Of a DNA stretch of 64,000 nt, positions 51,568 to 64,000 are shown piece by piece. The stretch is from Microbispora sp. ZYX-F-249. GTDB lineage: Bacteria; Actinomycetota; Actinomycetes; Streptosporangiales; Streptosporangiaceae. The notes below the pieces were generated by a model, which was given only the letters and a program-made list of their open reading frames with translations, was not told the DNA's origin and made no database searches. How positions within the stretch are numbered: the first letter of the stretch is position 1; each line of letters opens with the position of its first letter. Location of the stretch: contig NZ_JBDJAW010000034.1 of NCBI RefSeq assembly GCF_039649665.1, positions 1 to 64,000 on the forward strand, in the 5' to 3' direction. Both the position numbers and the translations under genes were made by a program.

Positions 51568-52221
51568 TCACGGCAGTTCGGCGAAGCGCTCGACCTGGTC
51601 CGTACGTCCGGACACGATGATGACGTCGCCGTAGCCGAGTTCGGTCTCCGCGGTGGCGTAGGTGAACTCCTCGCCCGGCCGCTTCACCGCCACCACCGTC
51701 ACGCCGTACTTGCGGCGCAGACTCGACTCGCCGAGGGGGACCCCGACGTACTCCTTGGGCGGGAGGGTCTTGACCAGGGCGAAGTTCTCGTCGACCTCCA
51801 TGTAGTCGAGCATCCGGCCGCTCACCAGGTGGGCCACGCGCTCGCCCATGTCGTGCTCCGGGAAGACCACGTGCTGAACGCCGATCCGGCTGAGGATGCG
51901 GCCGTGCTGCTGACTGACCGCCTTGGCCCAGATGTCGTCGATCTCCATCTCCACCAGCAGTGACGAGGTGAGGATGCTCGCCTCCAGGTCGCTGCCGATG
52001 GCGCACACCGCCCGGTAGAAGTCCGGCAGTCCGAGCTGACGCAGCGCCTCGGGATCGGTGGCGTCGGCGGTGGCGATGTGGGTGATCTGGCCGGCGAGGC
52101 TCTGCACCACCTTCGGGCGATGGTCGATGGCCAGCACCTCGGTGCCGCGCCGCACCAGCTCCAGAGCGAGCGCGGTGCCGAAGCGGCCGAGACCGATCAC
52201 CGCGACGGGGTCGTTTCTCAT
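51568..52221 (-). CDS. trkA: TrkA-family potassium channel regulator
   Basis: A 217-residue cytoplasmic gating subunit for TrkH. The N-terminal RCK/TrkA-N domain binds NAD(H)/ATP (VAVIGLGRFGTALALELVRRGTEVLAID), and the C-terminal TrkA-C domain follows (residues about 140-217). The ATG at 52221 is one base after the TrkH stop, so translation is coupled; an in-frame ATG 12 codons earlier lies inside trkH. Together they form a K+ uptake system. Confidence 0.9.
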   Translation of the reverse strand: MRNDPVAVIGLGRFGTALALELVRRGTEVLAIDHRPKVVQSLAGQITHIATADATDPEALRQLGLPDFYRAVCAIGSDLEASILTSSLLVEMEIDDIWAKAVSQQHGRILSRIGVQHVVFPEHDMGERVAHLVSGRMLDYMEVDENFALVKTLPPKEYVGVPLGESSLRRKYGVTVVAVKRPGEEFTYATAETELGYGDVIIVSGRTDQVERFAELP

Positions 52222-52222
52222 G

Positions 52223-53572
52223 TCAGCCAACGATGACGTCCTCCTCGGGTAGTTCATAGCGACGGCCGCGCTCCTTGAGCGCCAGCGCGGAGCCCAGTGT
52301 GAGCGGGCCGATCCGGCCGACGAACATCAGCAGGGTGAGCAGCACCTGGGCGGGGGGAGAGGCTTCGGGGGCGACGCTGACGGACAGTCCGGTCGTGCTG
52401 AAGGCGGAGACGACCTCGAACAGCACCCGGTCGAGGGAGTGCGGGGTCAGCACCAGCAGGACGTAGGTGAAGAGCGCGACCAGGCTCACGCTCAGCACGG
52501 TGAGCGAGACCGCCTGCCGCTGCGCGGCCTCGGTGAGGCGGCGGTGGCCGATGTTCACCCGGCTCTCGCCGCGCAGCTCCGCCCAGACGATGAACGCGAG
52601 CAGGCCCATGGTGGTGACCTTGATGCCGCCGGCGGTGCCCGCGCTGCCGCCGCCGACGAACATCAGCAGCTCGGTGACCAGCCAGCTGGAGGGGTGCATC
52701 TGTGCGATGTCGATGGTGTTGAACCCGGCGCTGCGCGGCATGACGGCGGTGAAGAAGGAGGCGAGCAGCTTGCCGTTGCCGTCCATGGGACCGAGCGTGC
52801 GGGGGTTGGTCCACTCCGTGACGAGGAAGATCAGCGTGCCCCCGGCCAGCAGGACGGTGGTGACCGCGAGCGTGATGCGGGTGAGCAGCGACCAGCGTCC
52901 GGGGCGGCGCCAGGACCGGCGCAGCTCGAACACCACCGGGTAGCCGAGCCCGCCGACGATCACCGCCGTCGCGACGGTCAGGCAGATCCACGGATCGGCG
53001 GAGAATCTGACCAGGCTGTCGGGCCACAGCGCGAATCCGGCGTTGTTGAACGACGAGACCGCGTGGAACACGCCCAGGTAGAGGCCGCGCCCGACGGGCT
53101 CGCCGTATCCGAGCACGAACCTGAGCGTGAGGACGGTCCCCACCACGGCCTCGCAGGACAGGTTGAACACGACGACCTTGCCCACCACGCGCCGCAGGTC
53201 GCCGGCGTTGAGCACCTTGGCCTCGGCCTGCGCGGACAGCCGGGCGCGCAGGCCCAGCCTGCGGGAGACGAGCAGGGTGAAGACGGTCGCGAGGGTCATG
53301 ATGCCGAGCCCGCCGACCTGGATCAGGACGGCGATGACCATCTCGCCCAACGCCGACCAGTGCGTGGCCGTGTCGACGACCGTCAGCCCGTTCACGCACA
53401 CCGCCGAGGTCGCGGTGAACAGGGCGGTGACCAAGCCCGCGGGCTCGCCCGAGGCCGTGGCCATCGGGCTGGACAGCAGGGTGGTCCCCAGGAGGATCGC
53501 CAGCCCGAACACCGTCGTGATGACCTGCGCCGGATGATGGAAACGCCCCAGCACGGCCCAGAACAGTCTCAT
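52223..53572 (-). CDS. trkH: TrkH-family potassium uptake membrane protein
   Basis: A 449-residue membrane protein with the four M1-P-M2 repeats of K+ transporters; selectivity-loop segments are seen as TSAVCVNGLTVVD, SSFNNAGFALWP, PRSAGFNTIDI and SAFSTTGLSVSV. It imports K+ driven by the ion gradient. The ATG at 53572 has GGAG eight bases upstream; longer readings add an Arg-rich region not typical of the family. The TrkA regulator follows one base after its stop. Confidence 0.9.
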   Translation of the reverse strand: MRLFWAVLGRFHHPAQVITTVFGLAILLGTTLLSSPMATASGEPAGLVTALFTATSAVCVNGLTVVDTATHWSALGEMVIAVLIQVGGLGIMTLATVFTLLVSRRLGLRARLSAQAEAKVLNAGDLRRVVGKVVVFNLSCEAVVGTVLTLRFVLGYGEPVGRGLYLGVFHAVSSFNNAGFALWPDSLVRFSADPWICLTVATAVIVGGLGYPVVFELRRSWRRPGRWSLLTRITLAVTTVLLAGGTLIFLVTEWTNPRTLGPMDGNGKLLASFFTAVMPRSAGFNTIDIAQMHPSSWLVTELLMFVGGGSAGTAGGIKVTTMGLLAFIVWAELRGESRVNIGHRRLTEAAQRQAVSLTVLSVSLVALFTYVLLVLTPHSLDRVLFEVVSAFSTTGLSVSVAPEASPPAQVLLTLLMFVGRIGPLTLGSALALKERGRRYELPEEDVIVG

Positions 53573-53793
53573 AACCGTCGCTCCGCGCTCTCGCGGCCGT
53601 CCCCGCGCTCCCGGACGCGTGTGCCGCCGGCACGGTGCCGGACCGCTGTCCTGAGAATCACCGGAAACCTCCGTACGGGCGATGCGACGACGTCGCCGAC
53701 CCGACTTCCCGGCACACCGCGGCCTACCGTAACAGCACATTACGGGTCAGGCACATCAGGGTTCGCGGCCCCGGCTACGTTCGGCGCGCGCGA

Positions 53794-55536: not shown

Positions 55537-57813
55537 CTAACGGCGCGACCAGTCGACCTGCCGGGGCTCGGAGCGCCACGGGGACGCCGTGGGGTGCGCG
55601 GGGTGTCTTGGCCGCGCGGGCCTGGCGGGCTGCACGGGTGAGGTGGCCGCCGACGTGGCGACGCCGGGCTCGTAGCCGCGGGCCGACGCCGTCACCCGTA
55701 CGGACAGCCGGGCGCCGCGGTCGCGGCCCTTGACGTGGTAGGTCCGCCCGGTCGCGCCCCTGATCTCGGCGCCGTCGCGCAGCCACTGGTAGCGGACCCG
55801 CTTCGGCGACGGCGTCCATGCGCCCGGGGACGCGGTCAGCGTGCGGCCGGCCTTCGCCACGCCGCGCACGACCGGGGGAGTGGTGTTGACCACCGCGACC
55901 GGCCGCGCGTCGTGCAGGTCCACCTCGGCCGCGCGGACGAACACCTGCCGATGGGCGTACCAGAGCTGGTAGTAGCGGTCCTGTCCCCTGAGGTCGGTGC
56001 GGTCGCCGGGCGCCGACCCGTCGAACGTGGTCGCCCGGTAGTAGTCGGTGACCACGTCGTCGTCGCTCACGGCGTACGCCTGCCCGGCCGGGACGGTGTA
56101 CTCCAGTGGCGAGATCGCCTGCACGGGGATGCCGGTGCCGTCGTACGCCGGCGCTTCGGGGTAGGCCCGGCCGTACACGGCGGCGGGGGTGCTCGCCCCC
56201 GCCTTCACGGTGACCGTCTTGGCCGAGGCCGGGATCACGACGGGCCGGTCGGCGGGGTTGCGCAGCCAGACCAGCGCCCCCGCCCACCACACGCCCAGCC
56301 AGTCGCCCTGCACCTGCGCGACGACGAGCTTGTGGCCGGAGACGACGCGGGCGCTGATGTCGCTGACGTACGTCGTGCCCGCCTCGCCGGTGGGCTTCCA
56401 GCCGGGGTCGGCGGCGAGCGGCGCGGTCTCGGACGGCGACTGGCGGAGCGGGAGGAAGTTGGTGCCGGCCCCGGCGACGCACTCCGGCGAGGGCGGCGAC
56501 GCGGCGGCGCAGCCGGTCAGCGGCTGCGGGTTGTCGTGGTAGCCGGTCCGCACCTCGACCACGTCGCCCGGCGCGACCCGGGTCGTGGCCGCCCGGCCGC
56601 CGCCGATCGGCGCGCCGAGCAGCTCGAAGTAGTGGTCCCAGTCCCAGTACGGCCCCGGGTCCCAGTGCATGCTCTTGGTGGCGCCGAGGATCGTCCCCGG
56701 CACCTGGTCGTGGCCGATGACGTGGGCCCGGTCGAGCGGGATGCCGTATTTGCCGGCCAGGTGCTTCACCAGCGCGGCCGAGGTCTGGTACATCGACTCG
56801 GTGTACCACCCCGCCCCGCCCGCGAAGCCCTCGTGCTCGATGCCGATGGCGTGCATGTTCACGTACCAGTTGCCGGCGTGCCAGCCCACGTCCTTGGCGT
56901 CGAGGTGCTGGGCGACGTGGCCGTCGGCGGAGCGGATGGTGTAGTTCCAGGCGAGGTACGTCGGGTCCTGGACGAGCCGCACCGAGGGGTCGTAGTAGCC
57001 CTCGGTGTCGTGGATGACGATGTAGTCGAGCTTCGGCCCGCCCGGCCCGGTCCGGTCGGCGACGTCGTGGTTGCCGTAGCGCGTCGTGTTGTCCGGGTCG
57101 GCCGGGACGTGCTTGGCGTACGGCGCGGGGATCAGCTCGCAGTCGAGACCGGAGGGGCAGTCCGTGCCCGGCGCGGCCGCCTTGGCCTGCGGCGGGAGGG
57201 CGACCGACTCGTCGGCGGGGAGCGTCACCGTCTGGCCGTCCGCGGTGACCCGGCTCTCGCCGGCGCGCAGGGTCTGGTAGACCTGCCGGACGAACTCGTG
57301 CTTGGCGCCGAACCGGGTGACCGCGTCCCGCCAGGAACCCAGGTCGTCGCCGCCGTCGTGGTAGGAGGCCAGCAGGGCCGCGCCGCCGCAGATGTTGGCG
57401 TTCGGCTGCGCGCGCAGCGTGTCGGCGGGTAGCCCGGTCAGCTCGGCCGCCGCCGCGATCTGGCTCCGCGTCCCGGCCGCCCGGCCCTTGCCGGCCCCGT
57501 CTCCCGTCATCGGCGTGTCGTCGCTCAGGTCGAACACGCCGTAGCCGCCGTCGGAGCTCGGCCTGCCCTGATGGTCGTCCCAGCGGGACAGCATGTACGC
57601 CACGGCCTTCAGCAGTGCTTCCGGCGCGCCCGTCGCCCGCGCCGCCTCGCCGAACGCCGCCTCCCGCGTCGGCGCCGACAGCGTCGCGGCGCAGGACACG
57701 CGAGGCGCGGCGCCGTCCGCGGCCTGCACCGCCGGTACGGCCGGCAGCAGCATCGCCGCGGCGGCGCCCATGACGGCGCCCGTGATGGCGGTGGTGCGCA
57801 GTGCGAGTCTCAC
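55537..57813 (-). CDS. Secreted N-acetylmuramoyl-L-alanine amidase with N-terminal lysozyme-like domain
   Basis: A 758-residue secreted protein. A signal peptide (to about residue 33, AVQA) precedes a lysozyme/transglycosylase-like region (LLKAVAYMLSRWDDHQGRPSSDGGYGVFDL). The amidase_2 domain follows (DYIVIHDTEGYYDPS, AWNYTIRSADGHVAQH, VGWHAGNWYVNMHAIGIEHEG, HVIGHDQVPGT), with zinc-binding His residues. The C-terminus is an Ig-like repeat domain (RVRYQWLRDGAEI). It should cleave peptidoglycan peptides. The GTG at 57813 gives a normal signal peptide; the longer reading adds a hydrophilic extension. AAGGGG lies nine bases upstream. Confidence 0.85.
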   Translation of the reverse strand: MRLALRTTAITGAVMGAAAAMLLPAVPAVQAADGAAPRVSCAATLSAPTREAAFGEAARATGAPEALLKAVAYMLSRWDDHQGRPSSDGGYGVFDLSDDTPMTGDGAGKGRAAGTRSQIAAAAELTGLPADTLRAQPNANICGGAALLASYHDGGDDLGSWRDAVTRFGAKHEFVRQVYQTLRAGESRVTADGQTVTLPADESVALPPQAKAAAPGTDCPSGLDCELIPAPYAKHVPADPDNTTRYGNHDVADRTGPGGPKLDYIVIHDTEGYYDPSVRLVQDPTYLAWNYTIRSADGHVAQHLDAKDVGWHAGNWYVNMHAIGIEHEGFAGGAGWYTESMYQTSAALVKHLAGKYGIPLDRAHVIGHDQVPGTILGATKSMHWDPGPYWDWDHYFELLGAPIGGGRAATTRVAPGDVVEVRTGYHDNPQPLTGCAAASPPSPECVAGAGTNFLPLRQSPSETAPLAADPGWKPTGEAGTTYVSDISARVVSGHKLVVAQVQGDWLGVWWAGALVWLRNPADRPVVIPASAKTVTVKAGASTPAAVYGRAYPEAPAYDGTGIPVQAISPLEYTVPAGQAYAVSDDDVVTDYYRATTFDGSAPGDRTDLRGQDRYYQLWYAHRQVFVRAAEVDLHDARPVAVVNTTPPVVRGVAKAGRTLTASPGAWTPSPKRVRYQWLRDGAEIRGATGRTYHVKGRDRGARLSVRVTASARGYEPGVATSAATSPVQPARPARPRHPAHPTASPWRSEPRQVDWSRR

Positions 57814-57916
57814 GTTGTGCGACCCCTTCTCGGATGCCTGTGGGGGACCAGACCGGGGCAATCACACCGCCGGGCGGAGCCGGGCGCCAGTGAATCGGGC
57901 GAATCTCATCGAGATC

Positions 57917-59415: not shown

Positions 59416-62400
59416 TCACGCCGCCAGCGTGCGCCCGGTGCCTTCCAGCAGCGTGGCGTCCGCCTCGGCCTGGACGGCGTCGAGGTCGTCGGCGATCTCG
59501 GCGCCCGCGACCGCGTCGGGCAGCGCGTCCTCCATGAGCCGCAGCGGCCGGAACCACAGCCCCAGCGCGCCCCAGAGCACCAGCAGCGCACCGCAGACGG
59601 CCAGCAGCAGGGCGACGCCGCGCCCCGGCCCCACTCCGACGACGTCGCCGACGACCGTGTCCGCGAGCGCGCCGCCGGGAGCGAGCAGCGGGCCGAAGAC
59701 GTCGTCGGCCAGCACCGGCGCCGTGAGGAACGCCAGCGGCGTCATGGACACGGCGAGCATCTGGTTGGTGGCCAGCACCCGTCCCTGCAGCTCCAGCCCG
59801 ACCTTGAGCTGGATGATGGCGAGCCAGTGCGCGTTGAGCACGCTGAGGAACGCCCACGCCATCAGACCGCCGAAGGCGGCCAGCGGGAGCGAGGGCCGCA
59901 GGCCGACGAGCAGCACCCCGGCCCCGAACCCGATCACGAAACCGACCATGCCGACCGCGCGCCGCTCGGTGCCGCCCCAGAACACCATGGCCAGGGAGCC
60001 GAGCACCGCGCCCAGGCCCTGCATGGCGGTCACCGCGCCCACGCCCGCGACGTCGCCGAACGACAGCACCGCGGGCACGGTCACCGCCTGGGCGAGCATG
60101 CCGAGGTAGTTCTCCACGACGAAGAACCCGATCATGATCATGAGCGGGCGCCGCCGTACGAGGAAGCGCCACCCGCCGGCGATGGCCTGCCAGAACGACT
60201 CCTCCAGCCTGCGGAACAGCCTGTCGGGGAAACGCACCAGCAGCAGCGTGCCGAGCCCGGCGAGGAACGTGACGACGTCCACCGCCACCACGCCGTGCAG
60301 CCCGACGGTCGCGACGAGAGCGGCGCCGCCCAGCGGGCCGGCGAGCATGCCGAGGCCGGTGCCGAGGTTGGCCAGCGCGTTGGCCTGCATGAGGTACGGC
60401 TTGGGCACGAGCTGCGCGACGGCCGCCAGGTAGGCGGGCCGGTGGAAGGCCGTCACCAGGGACAGCACCCCCGCGATGGCCCCGACCTGCCAGACCTCCA
60501 GCCGTCCGAGCCAGAGCAGGATCACCAGGGCGGCGGTGGCCACGGCGGAGACGCCGTCGCAGACGAGCATGACCAGCCGCCGGTCCACCCGGTCGGCGAC
60601 CGCGCCGCCCAGCGGCGCCGCGAGCAGCGACGGCAGCAGGGCGAGCATGGTGACGAGGGCGTAGTCGAGCACCCGGCCGTTCTCCTGGTAGGCCCACACG
60701 CCCAGGGCGAAGGAGGTCAGCGCGGCGCCGAGCAGCGACACGGTCTGCCCGGCCGCGACCGTGTAGAAGCGGCGCAGGTCCCGCCGGGCGCTCTGCCCGG
60801 CCACCTCGGCCCGCCCCACCGGCTCGGGCAGGTCGCCGCCGGCCCAGCGGCCGAGCCGCTCGTCGATCAGCCGCGCCAGCGTCTCGGCCTGGTGCTTCAG
60901 GAAGTAGTGCCCGGCGCGGGGGATCGTGGCGAGCTCGACCCGTTCGGCGAACGCCCCCCACTCGCGGTAGCGCTCCCGGTAGAGCTCGGTCGACCGGTCA
61001 CGCTCGCCGATCACGCACAGCAGCGGCGCCGCGAGCCGGCGCTCCTCATGCCCGGGGGAGTCCTCCGGGGAGTCCTCCGGGGAGTCCTCCGGGGAGTCCT
61101 CGGGAAGGTCGAGGTGGCGGCTGAACCACGCCTGCGCCTCCTCGACGTCGTGCCGCAGGGCGCGCAGCATGATCCCGGTGTCGCCGAAGTCGTCGTCCAC
61201 GGCGCCCAGCGTGCGCAGGAAGTCGCGCTGGGCGCGGTCGGAGGACCAGCGGTGGGCGGGGAACCTCCGGTTCCACCAGGCCGACAGCCGTCCGGGCAGC
61301 CGCGCGTCGGGGAAACTGCCGCCGACGACGACACCGGCGAGCGGCGTCCCCGCGGCCTCCAGCCGCAGCGCCAGCTCCATCGTCGCGGCCGACCCGACGC
61401 AGTGCCCGTACAGGGCGATCGGGCCGCGCACCCCGGCCAGTTCGGCCGTGAGGCGGCCGGCCAGCTCCGCTATCGGCAGCGGGTCCTCCTCGGGCCGCGC
61501 CGAGTCGTGCCCGGGCAGCTCGACGGCGACCACCGCGGTCCCGGGCGAGAGACGGGCCAGCTCGGCGGCGAGCGGCCGGAAGGCGGCGGCGGAACCACCC
61601 CCGTACGGCACGCAGACGAGGGTGCGGCTCGCCGTACGCGGACCCGCCAGATGGTGCAGCAGACCGGTGGGGGCCTGCGCGCCGCCGTCGAGGTGCGCGG
61701 CCAGCTCGCGCACCGTGGGCCGGGTGAACAGGTCGATCACCCGCAGCGTGGGGTCGATCTCCCGGACCGCCCGCACCGCGCGGAAGGAGTCGCCGCCGAG
61801 CGCGAAGAAGTCGTCGTCGACGCCGAAGTCCGTCACGCCCAGGACGTCGGCCCACACGGCGGCGATCCGCAGCTCGGCCGGGGTGGCCGGCGCCACCCGG
61901 CCGGTGGCGGGCGCCGCGTCGGGGACCGGCAGGCGGGCCCGGTCGATCTTGCCGAGCGGGGTGAGCGGCAGCTCGTCGAGGACGGCGATCGCGGACGGGA
62001 CCATGTAGTCGGGCAGCCGCTCACGCAGTCCCGCCCTGACCGCCGCGAGGTCCACGGTGGCGGGCGCGACCCAGGCGGCCAGCCGCCGGGAGCGTCCCTC
62101 GCCGACCGGCAGCACCGCGGCCTCCCGGACGCCGGGCTGCTCCTGCAGGGCGGCCTTCACCTCGCCCAGCTCCACCCGGAAACCCCTGATCTTGACCTGG
62201 TCGTCGACCCGGCCGAGGAACTCCACGAGCCCCTGGGCGTTGAGCCGGACCCGGTCGCCGGTGCGGTAGCAGCGCCGGGTCCCGGTCACCGGGTCGGGGA
62301 CGAACCGCTGCGCCGTGAGGTCGGGCCGGTTCAGATAGCCGCGGGCGACGCTCGGGCCCGCCACCCACAGCTCGCCCGGCACCCCGGCGGGCAGCGGGCG

Positions 62401-64000
62401 GCCCGCGGCGTCCACGATGTAGCAGTCCACTCCGGGCAGCGGGCGGCCGAGCGGCACCGATCCCGCCCCCGTGGGCGTGGCGGGCGCCCGGCCGCCGAGG
62501 ACCGAGACCGTCGTCTCCGTCGGCCCGCAGTGGATCTGCAGCTCCAGGTCGGGACGGGCCGCGCGGATGCGCTCGGCCAGTTCCCACGAGGTGGCCTCCC
62601 CGGCGAGGATCAGCACCCGGCGCGGCAGCATCCGGGCCAGGTCGCCGTGGGCGGCCAGCAGCTCCAGATGGCTGGGCACCATCTTGATCACGTCGACGGG
62701 GTGAGTGGCGAGATAGGCGGCGTACGCCTCGGGGTCGGTGGCGGTGTCCTGGTCCACGAGGTGGACCGCGGCGCCCCGGAACAGCGCGCCGTACAGGCAG
62801 GTCAGCCCCAGGTCGGCGGCGGTGGTGGAGACCACCCCGTACGACGCGTACGCGTCGGGCACCAGCTCGGCCAGGCCGTGCAGGTAGTGCAGGGCCGACC
62901 GGTGCTCGATCGCGGCGCCCTTGGGCCGCCCGGTGGAGCCGGACGTGAAGATCACATGGACCAGCCGGTCCGGGGCGACCTCGACGTCCGGCGGATCCTC
63001 GGGTCCGGCGGCCAGCAGTTCGGGCAGGACCAGCGTGCCGGGAAGCCGGCCCGCGTGCTCGGGATCGGCGAGCACGACCCGCGCGCCGGCCGTCTCCAGC
63101 ATGTGGCCGAGACGGTCGTCGGGATAGAGAGGATCCATCGGCAGGTAGGCCCCGCCCGCGCGCAGCACGCCGAGGAGCGCGGGGACCAACCCGCGGTGCC
63201 GGCCGGCGAGGACGCCGACCGGCTCGTCCGGCCGCACCCCAGCCGTGACCAGGTGGTGGGCGATGCGGTTGGCCAGCCGGTCCACCTCGCCGTACGTGAG
63301 CGAGCCGGAGGCGTCGGTCACCGCCGTCGCCCCGGGCGTGCGCCGCGCGTGGTCGCCGACGAACGCGTGCAGCGGCCGGGTCAGGTCCATCGGCATCCGC
63401 GTGCCGGAGACGACGGGCCCGGTCACCGGCTCCAGCGGCACGGCCGCCGCGGGCGCGTCGAGGTCGGCGAGCATGCCCTCCAGCAGGGTGAGGTACCAGC
63501 CGGTGACGCGCCGGGCGGTCGTCTCGTCGAACAGGTCGACGCGGTAGGCGAGCTCGCCCTCGTACGTCTCGCCCATGTTGTCCAGGGCGAGGTTGAGGTC
63601 GTACTTGGTGGTGCGCAGGGGGAACTGCACCTGCTCGGCGGACAGGCCGGGGAAGTCCGGCGTCCGGGAGCCGTCCTCCAACACGTTGAGCAGCACCTGG
63701 AAGATCGGCGTGCTGGCGAGGTTGCGCTCGGGGTGCAGGTGCTCCACGATGCGGTCGAACGGAACGTCACGGTGGGTGAGCGCGTCGAGCACGGCGGCCT
63801 TCGTCCGGGCCAGGAGTTCGCGGCCGGTCGGCTCGCCGGCCCTGTCCCCCCGCAGCACGAGCGTGTTGACGAAGCAGCCGAGCATGTCCGCGGTGCCGGG
63901 GTGGAGCCGTCCCGCCTCGGGCACGCCCACCGGCACGTCGTCGGTGCCGCAGACCCGGCCGAGCAGCTCCTGCCAGGCGGCCAGCAACACCATGAACGGC
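59416..64000 (-). CDS. NRPS C-A-T-TE module fused to an MFS exporter (partial, N-terminus beyond the window)
   Basis: About 1528 residues of an NRPS reading into the window edge. Numbering from the first in-window Met: end of a condensation domain (1-195, GCFVNTLVLRGD), adenylation domain (205-690; FTSGSTGRPKG, YRTGDRVR, LGKIDR), carrier domain (705-770; Ser736 in LGGDSF), thioesterase (790-1045; Cys865 in GHCVG, Asp999, His1029) and a 12-helix MFS transporter (about 1075-1490, with GGAVADRVDRRLVML). The A-domain pocket reads close to the aspartate code. The missing N-terminus includes the condensation HHxxxDG motif and any preceding modules. One chain would build, release and export a peptide. 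Confidence 0.85.
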   Translation of the reverse strand, partial: PFMVLLAAWQELLGRVCGTDDVPVGVPEAGRLHPGTADMLGCFVNTLVLRGDRAGEPTGRELLARTKAAVLDALTHRDVPFDRIVEHLHPERNLASTPIFQVLLNVLEDGSRTPDFPGLSAEQVQFPLRTTKYDLNLALDNMGETYEGELAYRVDLFDETTARRVTGWYLTLLEGMLADLDAPAAAVPLEPVTGPVVSGTRMPMDLTRPLHAFVGDHARRTPGATAVTDASGSLTYGEVDRLANRIAHHLVTAGVRPDEPVGVLAGRHRGLVPALLGVLRAGGAYLPMDPLYPDDRLGHMLETAGARVVLADPEHAGRLPGTLVLPELLAAGPEDPPDVEVAPDRLVHVIFTSGSTGRPKGAAIEHRSALHYLHGLAELVPDAYASYGVVSTTAADLGLTCLYGALFRGAAVHLVDQDTATDPEAYAAYLATHPVDVIKMVPSHLELLAAHGDLARMLPRRVLILAGEATSWELAERIRAARPDLELQIHCGPTETTVSVLGGRAPATPTGAGSVPLGRPLPGVDCYIVDAAGRPLPAGVPGELWVAGPSVARGYLNRPDLTAQRFVPDPVTGTRRCYRTGDRVRLNAQGLVEFLGRVDDQVKIRGFRVELGEVKAALQEQPGVREAAVLPVGEGRSRRLAAWVAPATVDLAAVRAGLRERLPDYMVPSAIAVLDELPLTPLGKIDRARLPVPDAAPATGRVAPATPAELRIAAVWADVLGVTDFGVDDDFFALGGDSFRAVRAVREIDPTLRVIDLFTRPTVRELAAHLDGGAQAPTGLLHHLAGPRTASRTLVCVPYGGGSAAAFRPLAAELARLSPGTAVVAVELPGHDSARPEEDPLPIAELAGRLTAELAGVRGPIALYGHCVGSAATMELALRLEAAGTPLAGVVVGGSFPDARLPGRLSAWWNRRFPAHRWSSDRAQRDFLRTLGAVDDDFGDTGIMLRALRHDVEEAQAWFSRHLDLPEDSPEDSPEDSPEDSPGHEERRLAAPLLCVIGERDRSTELYRERYREWGAFAERVELATIPRAGHYFLKHQAETLARLIDERLGRWAGGDLPEPVGRAEVAGQSARRDLRRFYTVAAGQTVSLLGAALTSFALGVWAYQENGRVLDYALVTMLALLPSLLAAPLGGAVADRVDRRLVMLVCDGVSAVATAALVILLWLGRLEVWQVGAIAGVLSLVTAFHRPAYLAAVAQLVPKPYLMQANALANLGTGLGMLAGPLGGAALVATVGLHGVVAVDVVTFLAGLGTLLLVRFPDRLFRRLEESFWQAIAGGWRFLVRRRPLMIMIGFFVVENYLGMLAQAVTVPAVLSFGDVAGVGAVTAMQGLGAVLGSLAMVFWGGTERRAVGMVGFVIGFGAGVLLVGLRPSLPLAAFGGLMAWAFLSVLNAHWLAIIQLKVGLELQGRVLATNQMLAVSMTPLAFLTAPVLADDVFGPLLAPGGALADTVVGDVVGVGPGRGVALLLAVCGALLVLWGALGLWFRPLRLMEDALPDAVAGAEIADDLDAVQAEADATLLEGTGRTLAA
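61055..61102 (-). repeat. Four 12-bp tandem repeats inside the thioesterase domain
   Basis: Four copies of GGGGAGTCCTCC (the last ending G) at 61055-61102 encode a PEDS repeat (residues 964-979) in a surface loop of the TE lid region. A perfect in-frame minisatellite of this kind usually varies in copy number between strains. Confidence 0.8.

What the first reader, a model, noticed from the sequence alone, without database searches (positions are those of the whole stretch)
59416..64000. NRPS module and MFS exporter in one polypeptide
The frame continues without a stop from a condensation-adenylation-carrier-thioesterase module straight into a 12-helix MFS domain with its own loop motif. Release and export would be physically linked, so the peptide may leave the TE directly into the exporter. 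Such fusions appear in actinomycete annotations but are little studied.
Basis: partly seen in the sequence, partly recalled or inferred. Interest (0 to 1): 0.75.

Follow-up and report, generated by a model that had tools for sequence, protein, structure and literature searches.

The report
Peptide-making enzyme with built-in exporter
A soil-type bacterium's peptide assembly enzyme, of the kind that makes antibiotics, carries a membrane exporter on the same protein chain, and the same joined design recurs in distant bacteria, so finishing the peptide and pumping it out are probably done by one molecule.

Summary
The fusion is a minus-strand gene, 59416-64803 in contig coordinates, running 803 bases past the window: 1795 aa, C-A-PCP-TE-MFS. 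A 1645-aa A-PCP-C-A-PCP gene overlaps its start, so this is a two-gene trimodular NRPS. It is not an artefact: 80 of 80 kept relatives from six phyla carry TE and MFS in one open frame (best matches, so biased toward fusions). The MFS has the lowest dN/dS of C, A, TE and MFS in 4 of 5 comparisons. The TE resembles the beta-lactone-forming TE of ObiF1: Cys nucleophile, Asp after strand 7, His after strand 8. Most likely the polypeptide finishes a tripeptide, releases it at the TE and exports it through its own MFS. Direct handoff is plausible but unproven. The last adenylation code looks Asp-like (recalled), so a beta-lactone is unlikely here. In ten open-access searches, judged from capped listings, I found no study of this bacterial architecture.

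The parts
59416..64000 (-). NRPS termination gene, part inside the window; the gene continues to a GTG start at contig position 64803, 1795 aa in all
63445..64000 (-). condensation domain, C-terminal part (the whole match is contig 63445-64689)
   Evidence: Pfam PF00668, residues 39-453 of 1795
61948..63354 (-). adenylation domain with its C-terminal subdomain; ten-residue code DLTKIAHVSK (Asp-like by recalled rules)
   Evidence: Pfam PF00501 and PF13193; code
61690..61869 (-). peptidyl carrier domain (LGGDS)
   Evidence: Pfam PF00550; sequence
60874..61626 (-). thioesterase domain of the ObiF1 kind
61399..61401 (-). Cys nucleophile of the thioesterase (YGHCVGS; Cys86 of the 746-aa TE-MFS query)
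60997..60999 (-). triad Asp (Asp220, after strand 7)
60907..60909 (-). triad His (His250, after strand 8)
60799..60858 (-). TE-MFS linker; its length varies among relatives
   Evidence: 36-97 residues measured between fixed flanking points, 84 rows
59524..60798 (-). MFS exporter domain, 12 main helices
   Evidence: Pfam PF07690 and PF05977; model
59422..59484 (-). C-terminal tail helix after the last transmembrane helix, with Gln729 invariant in alignment A2; its motif was not seen by eye in 8 stand-alone relatives, nor in the more distant fused group L037-L040

Best explanation
The gene is the last subunit of a two-gene, three-module NRPS. Its C-A-PCP module adds the third residue, an ObiF1-type cysteine thioesterase takes the tripeptide off the carrier and releases it, and the MFS domain on the same chain exports it. 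The fusion keeps release at the membrane, beside the exporter's inner face. Shown: domain order, frame, conservation, triad and purifying selection. Predicted: a defined TE-MFS arrangement. Inferred: that the MFS transports this product, and that proximity speeds export or protects the cell.
For: C-A-PCP-TE-MFS in one frame, with the upstream A-PCP-C-A-PCP gene overlapping its start. 87 of 200 genomes of the family have a TE-MFS match at E<=1e-30, many spanning the whole junction in one frame. 80 of 80 kept named loci have TE and MFS in one open frame. TE and MFS distances are strongly correlated (Mantel r 0.95, 0 of 999 permutations as high, 84 rows), as expected if they descend as a unit. 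Fused MFS domains fall on one side of a 100/97 branch from 8 stand-alone relatives. MFS dN/dS is 0.12-0.34 in five comparisons, the lowest of C, A, TE and MFS in four of them. The TE matches ObiF1 at E 2.8e-30, and the fold search puts ObiF1 first, with type II TEs and SulM next. AlphaFold2 pTM is 0.88 for the window protein and 0.86 for a relative with about 60 disordered linker residues; I read these as confident relative placement of the two domains. No gene family other than the NRPS genes is shared by more than 9 of the 80 loci (crude ORF calls), so the exporter travels with the synthetase itself.
Against: No product, localisation or transport data exist. Linker length varies from 36 to 97 residues and the linker is less constrained than the domains (29 codons), which fits a flexible tether as well as a fixed channel. 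I had no coordinates or pairwise error matrix, so which faces meet is unknown. The MFS falls well below NCBI's cut-offs for named exporters (EntS 65 of 324 bits, TIGR00900 174 of 320), so its substrate is not predicted by family. Fused thioesterases are not all cysteine types: 2 of 14 fused loci in the TE-only set have Ser.
Confidence: 0.6

Rival explanations
1. Plain tether: the MFS exports the product, but there is no handoff. Fusion only fixes one-to-one expression and keeps the synthetase near the membrane; the peptide diffuses to the exporter.
For: Variable linker length, with one long linker modelled as disordered. NRPS genes followed at once by separate MFS genes exist on Nostoc and Streptomyces plasmids, so adjacency without fusion also occurs.
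Against: The high pTM of both models, including the one with a disordered linker, suggests a defined arrangement of the domains.
Confidence: 0.25
2. Membrane anchor: the MFS part has lost transport and only ties the assembly line to the membrane, as tethering by CesCD is required for cereulide synthesis.
For: Tethering of the cereulide NRPS by an ABC transporter is reported as essential for production (PMC7527721; outline with abstract and one discussion section read).
Against: The MFS has the lowest dN/dS in four of five comparisons, and motif A and the 12 helices are kept, more than a bare anchor would need.
Confidence: 0.08
3. Self-protection: the fused MFS mainly clears a reactive or toxic product or shunt intermediate from the producer's cytosol, and secretion of a useful product is secondary.
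For: 58 of 58 members of A2 match drug-efflux models (Mef, Tap) at E<=1e-3; the window member scores far below their cut-offs.
Against: Nothing here separates this from ordinary export; the toxicity of the product is unknown.
Confidence: 0.05
4. Artefact: two genes joined by a sequencing or assembly error.
For: None found.
Against: Separate assemblies from six phyla show the same join.
Confidence: 0.01

Closest known systems
ObiF1 thioesterase (obafluorin NRPS, PDB 6n8e)
   Same: Best sequence and fold match for the TE; Cys nucleophile, matching Asp and His
   Different: ObiF1 makes a beta-lactone; its structure paper has no 'MFS' in the main text (PMC6668435, term search and three passages); the window's last adenylation code looks Asp-like, which gives no beta-hydroxyl
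SulM thioesterase (sulfazecin, PDB 8w2c, 8w2d)
   Same: Cys nucleophile and Asp in position II (PMC11298585, passages); fold match, TM-score 0.82 by target length
   Different: Window lacks the Gln-Cys-Asn motif (it has His-Cys-Val); no MFS mentioned in the passages read
Type II thioesterases (RifR, RedJ, BorB)
   Same: Asp in position II; next-best sequence and fold matches
   Different: Stand-alone proteins with a Ser nucleophile; the TE tree separates type II-like TEs by a 100/100 branch
Cereulide synthetase CesAB with transporter CesCD
   Same: NRPS physically bound to its transporter at the membrane (PMC7527721)
   Different: Separate proteins; an ABC transporter, contacting condensation domains and not the TE
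NRPS gene followed at once by a stand-alone MFS gene (Nostoc sp. UHCC 0870 plasmid)
   Same: NRPS ending in a TE-like domain, MFS gene starting one base later
   Different: Two genes; Ser-type TE (GYSFGS); MFS only 34% identical
Fungal PKS annotated KS-AT-ACP-ACP-TE-MFS (Verticillium)
   Same: TE followed by MFS in one annotated product (PMC9495618, table passage)
   Different: Fungal PKS gene model, not bacterial NRPS; could be an annotation merge

Membership tests
NRPS termination module (C-A-PCP-TE) | C, A, PCP and TE domains in order | tested here: met
   Pfam hits above gathering scores
NRPS termination module (C-A-PCP-TE) | Condensation motif HHxxxDG | tested here: inconclusive
   Reads HHIAFDA, last residue Ala (sequence; motif recalled)
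NRPS termination module (C-A-PCP-TE) | Makes and releases a peptide | not testable with these tools
   No chemistry available
ObiF1-type beta-lactone-forming TE | Cys nucleophile | tested here: met
   Cys in 30 of 30 loci fetched, found without a Cys pattern; but 2 of 14 fused loci have Ser
ObiF1-type beta-lactone-forming TE | Triad Asp after strand 7 (position II) | tested here: met
   Asp220 follows strand 212-217, between the strand after which comes the lid and the strand before His250; criterion from PMC11298585 passages, which also notes it in some type II TEs
ObiF1-type beta-lactone-forming TE | Beta-hydroxy residue at the peptide C-terminus | tested here: inconclusive
   Last code DLTKIAHVSK looks Asp-like by recalled rules; no hydroxylase among the 4 upstream and 7 window genes scanned
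ObiF1-type beta-lactone-forming TE | Beta-lactone product | not testable with these tools
   No chemistry available
SulM-type monobactam TE | Gln-Cys-Asn motif | tested here: not met
   His-Cys-Val here; criterion from PMC11298585 passages
MFS transporter (Pfam MFS_1) | Score above curated cut-off | tested here: met
   76.1 bits against 33.4
EntS enterobactin exporter (NCBIfam) | Score above curated cut-off | tested here: not met
   65.4 bits against 324
TIGR00900 H+ antiporter subfamily | Score above curated cut-off | tested here: not met
   173.6 bits against 319.6

The most novel reading that the evidence does not exclude
The TE-MFS unit is a synthase-transporter: an ObiF1-type cysteine TE is docked on the inner face of the MFS and releases a small, possibly strained or cyclic, peptide straight into the exporter cavity, so release and translocation are one vectorial step. 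It is one ancient module, shared by several phyla, that makes NRPS loci self-sufficient for export.
Probability: 0.22. Interest if true: 0.8.

Novelty: new variant of a known kind. Interest (0 to 1): 0.52.

Why it matters
Secreted natural products must leave the cell, and how assembly lines hand products to exporters is little understood. Named cultured species include Herpetosiphon aurantiacus DSM 785 and Streptomyces clavuligerus ATCC 27064. Handoff can therefore be tested by cutting one linker. The architecture is also a genome-mining handle for small peptides released by ObiF1-type thioesterases.

Tried and rejected
Sequencing error or a split gene: rejected. Beta-lactone or monobactam product at the window locus: weakened by the Asp-like last code, the missing QCN motif and the lack of a hydroxylase among the flanking genes scanned; in L120, L122 and L123 the last code looks Gly-like by recall, which cannot give a beta-lactone. 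'Cys TE occurs only with MFS': rejected. Of 30 TE-only loci (the window included), 14 are fused (12 Cys, 2 Ser), 1 is cut by the contig end (Cys) and 15 are unfused (13 Ser, 2 Cys), and the TE tree puts the unfused ObiF1 and two other Cys TEs in a group beside the fused one. Single origin of the fusion: the TE tree has fused rows on one side of a branch, but weakly (85/13, bootstrap not settled). The first MFS tree needed two changes; without the very long stand-alone row L163 it needs one, at 100/97. One origin is compatible, not proven, and only 8-9 stand-alone MFS rows were used. Conserved cluster partners: no non-NRPS gene family in more than 9 of 80 loci. Product identity from adenylation codes: six code strings gave 0 papers. 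Plasmid records H1 and H3 carry no annotation there, so I could not confirm NCBI product names for such fusions, which I recall but did not see. The phylum sample (396 genomes) gave a fused match only in the own genome; the other seven genomes with matches look stand-alone (six by open frame; one by domain scan), but only 2 candidates per genome were scored. The matches listed for the order sample all lie in the window's own family.

Full report
What is there. The window is bases 1-64000 of an 84269-base contig of an 8.8-Mb genome. The closest named locus found is in Microbispora sp. H13382, 96% identical over the TE-MFS stretch (records very near the window's own genome may be left out there). 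The finding is a minus-strand gene with a stop at 59416 and a GTG start at contig position 64803, 1795 aa. Pfam gives Condensation 39-453, AMP-binding 484-824, AMP-binding_C 881-952, PP-binding 979-1038, Thioesterase 1060-1165 with Abhydrolase_6 to 1310, and MFS 1350-1684. The next gene upstream (64800-69737, 1645 aa) is A-PCP-C-A-PCP and its stop overlaps the GTG start. The pair is thus a three-module NRPS. Further upstream lie an alpha-L-arabinofuranosidase and a family 43 glycoside hydrolase, and downstream a trypsin-like protease.

Is it real? With the TE-MFS stretch as query, 87 of 200 genomes of the family and 61 of 150 of an overlapping order sample had a match at E<=1e-30, many spanning the full junction in one frame without stops (listings truncated). 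In 80 of 80 the TE and MFS lie in one open frame, directly after a carrier domain and with an A domain in the same frame; in 6 of 80 no A domain was detected in the last module itself. These 80 are the best-covering matches, so the fraction is biased toward fusions. Hosts include Streptosporangium, Planomonospora, Nonomuraea, Amycolatopsis, Actinomadura, Streptomyces, Kitasatospora, Herpetosiphon, Anaerolineae MAGs, Paenibacillus, Corallococcus, a Spirochaetes MAG, a Clostridia MAG and Rhodanobacter. The own genome holds at least three further C-A-T-TE-MFS genes, on contigs C27, C21 and C3. Streptomyces clavuligerus ATCC 27064 has one on its large plasmid, with Cys in the TE. Against this breadth, a phylum sample of 396 genomes gave a fused match only in the own genome, the seven others looking stand-alone, with just 2 candidates per genome scored.

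Selection and co-descent. Against five relatives, simple dN/dS counts were 0.12-0.34 for the MFS, 0.18-0.41 for the TE, 0.19-0.37 for A and 0.32-0.52 for C. The MFS is lowest in four of the five; against L056 C is slightly lower. The 29-codon linker is less constrained (0.45-2.1 in four comparisons; no synonymous change in the fifth). TE and MFS distances correlate at r 0.95 over 84 rows. Fused MFS domains (47 hand-picked rows) lie on one side of a 100/97 branch from 8 stand-alone relatives; with a ninth, very long row included two changes were needed.

The thioesterase. The best solved match by far is the TE of ObiF1 (E 2.8e-30), then type II TEs; fold search agrees, with SulM close. The nucleophile is Cys in 30 of 30 loci fetched by an unbiased search. 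In the model Cys86 follows strand 80-85, Asp220 follows strand 212-217 and His250 follows strand 239-245. The SulM paper describes Cys plus Asp in that position for ObiF1 and SulM, alone among structurally characterised NRPS TEs, and notes the Asp position also in type II TEs such as RifR and RedJ (PMC11298585, passages). A TE-only search gave 30 loci: 14 fused to MFS (12 Cys, 2 Ser), 1 cut, 15 unfused (13 Ser, 2 Cys). Cys and fusion go together but not strictly. The tree places fused TEs and ObiF1-like TEs on one side of a 100/100 branch from type II-like TEs (the very long Nostoc row L166 also falls there), so Cys may predate the fusion.

The product. The last adenylation code is DLTKIAHVSK in 33 of 86 rows examined (3 window domains, 80 named loci, 3 own paralogues), the window's third domain included, and is shared between Streptosporangiaceae, Herpetosiphon and Paenibacillus; 16 rows have DFTKIAHMIK; two could not be read. 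Where no A domain was found in the last module, the code is that of the module before. By recalled rules DLTKIAHVSK looks like Asp. In 11 of the 80 loci the whole set DPPSLSLVHK / DVFTxIAxYK / DLTKIAHVSK is kept as a gene pair. In Herpetosiphon and Paenibacillus relatives a glycosyltransferase gene lies between an A-PCP gene and the fusion gene (Pfam run on 3 of 7). The window's product is predicted only as a tripeptide.

The exporter and the joint. The MFS part has 12 main helices and a tail helix conserved in A2; the tail motif was not seen by eye in eight stand-alone relatives nor in the distant fused group L037-L040. AlphaFold2 pTM is 0.88 for 746 residues. For Sphaerisporangium corydalis, whose linker is the longest of 84 measured (97), the linker is modelled with pLDDT under 50 yet pTM is 0.86. 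If domain placement were uncertain I would expect about 0.6, the MFS share of the chain; this is my estimate, not a tool result. A defined TE-MFS arrangement is therefore suggested. No coordinates or pairwise errors were given.

Literature. The others on NRPS, MFS and fusion terms showed no study of a bacterial NRPS with a fused MFS, judged from titles and abstract starts; two searches listed 20 of 184 and 25 of 32 papers, the five papers were not opened, and the library lacks most subscription papers. Passages were read in PMC9495618, PMC3924187, PMC11057048 and PMC4599437. Nearest ideas: the cereulide synthetase tethered by its ABC transporter (PMC7527721, abstract and one section), and fungal TE-MFS annotations (PMC9495618, PMC11057048).

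Verdict. A real, conserved and widespread architecture whose function is untested. The reading of linked release and export is likely in outline; direct handoff is open.

Noticed in passing
window 61055-61101: A perfect 12-base tandem repeat (3.9 copies) codes PEDS repeats in a TE loop; relatives L049 and L054 have a different or shorter stretch there.
   Followed up: partly
L149 (G785:C61): Two TE domains in tandem at the end of an NRPS frame, the first a Cys type, with no MFS.
   Followed up: partly
L092, L093, L110 (Herpetosiphon, Paenibacillus): A glycosyltransferase gene sits between an A-PCP gene and the C-A-PCP-TE-MFS gene, suggesting a glycosylated product or intermediate.
   Followed up: partly
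L075, L076, L081, L098 (Amycolatopsis): PALP and ornithine-cyclodeaminase-like genes follow the TE-MFS gene (Pfam checked in L075 only), resembling a diaminopropionate pathway (recalled); their last module has no detected A domain.
   Followed up: partly
L142, L148: Fused TEs with Ser and one extra residue at the nucleophile elbow (GHSSVGS), in a clade with members that have GHCGVG or GHCVGS.
   Followed up: partly
window 51568-53740, minus strand: TrkA-like and TrkH-like potassium uptake genes overlapping end to end.
   Followed up: no
window 55537-57861, minus strand: An Amidase_2 protein of 774 aa next to a trypsin-like protease gene.
   Followed up: no
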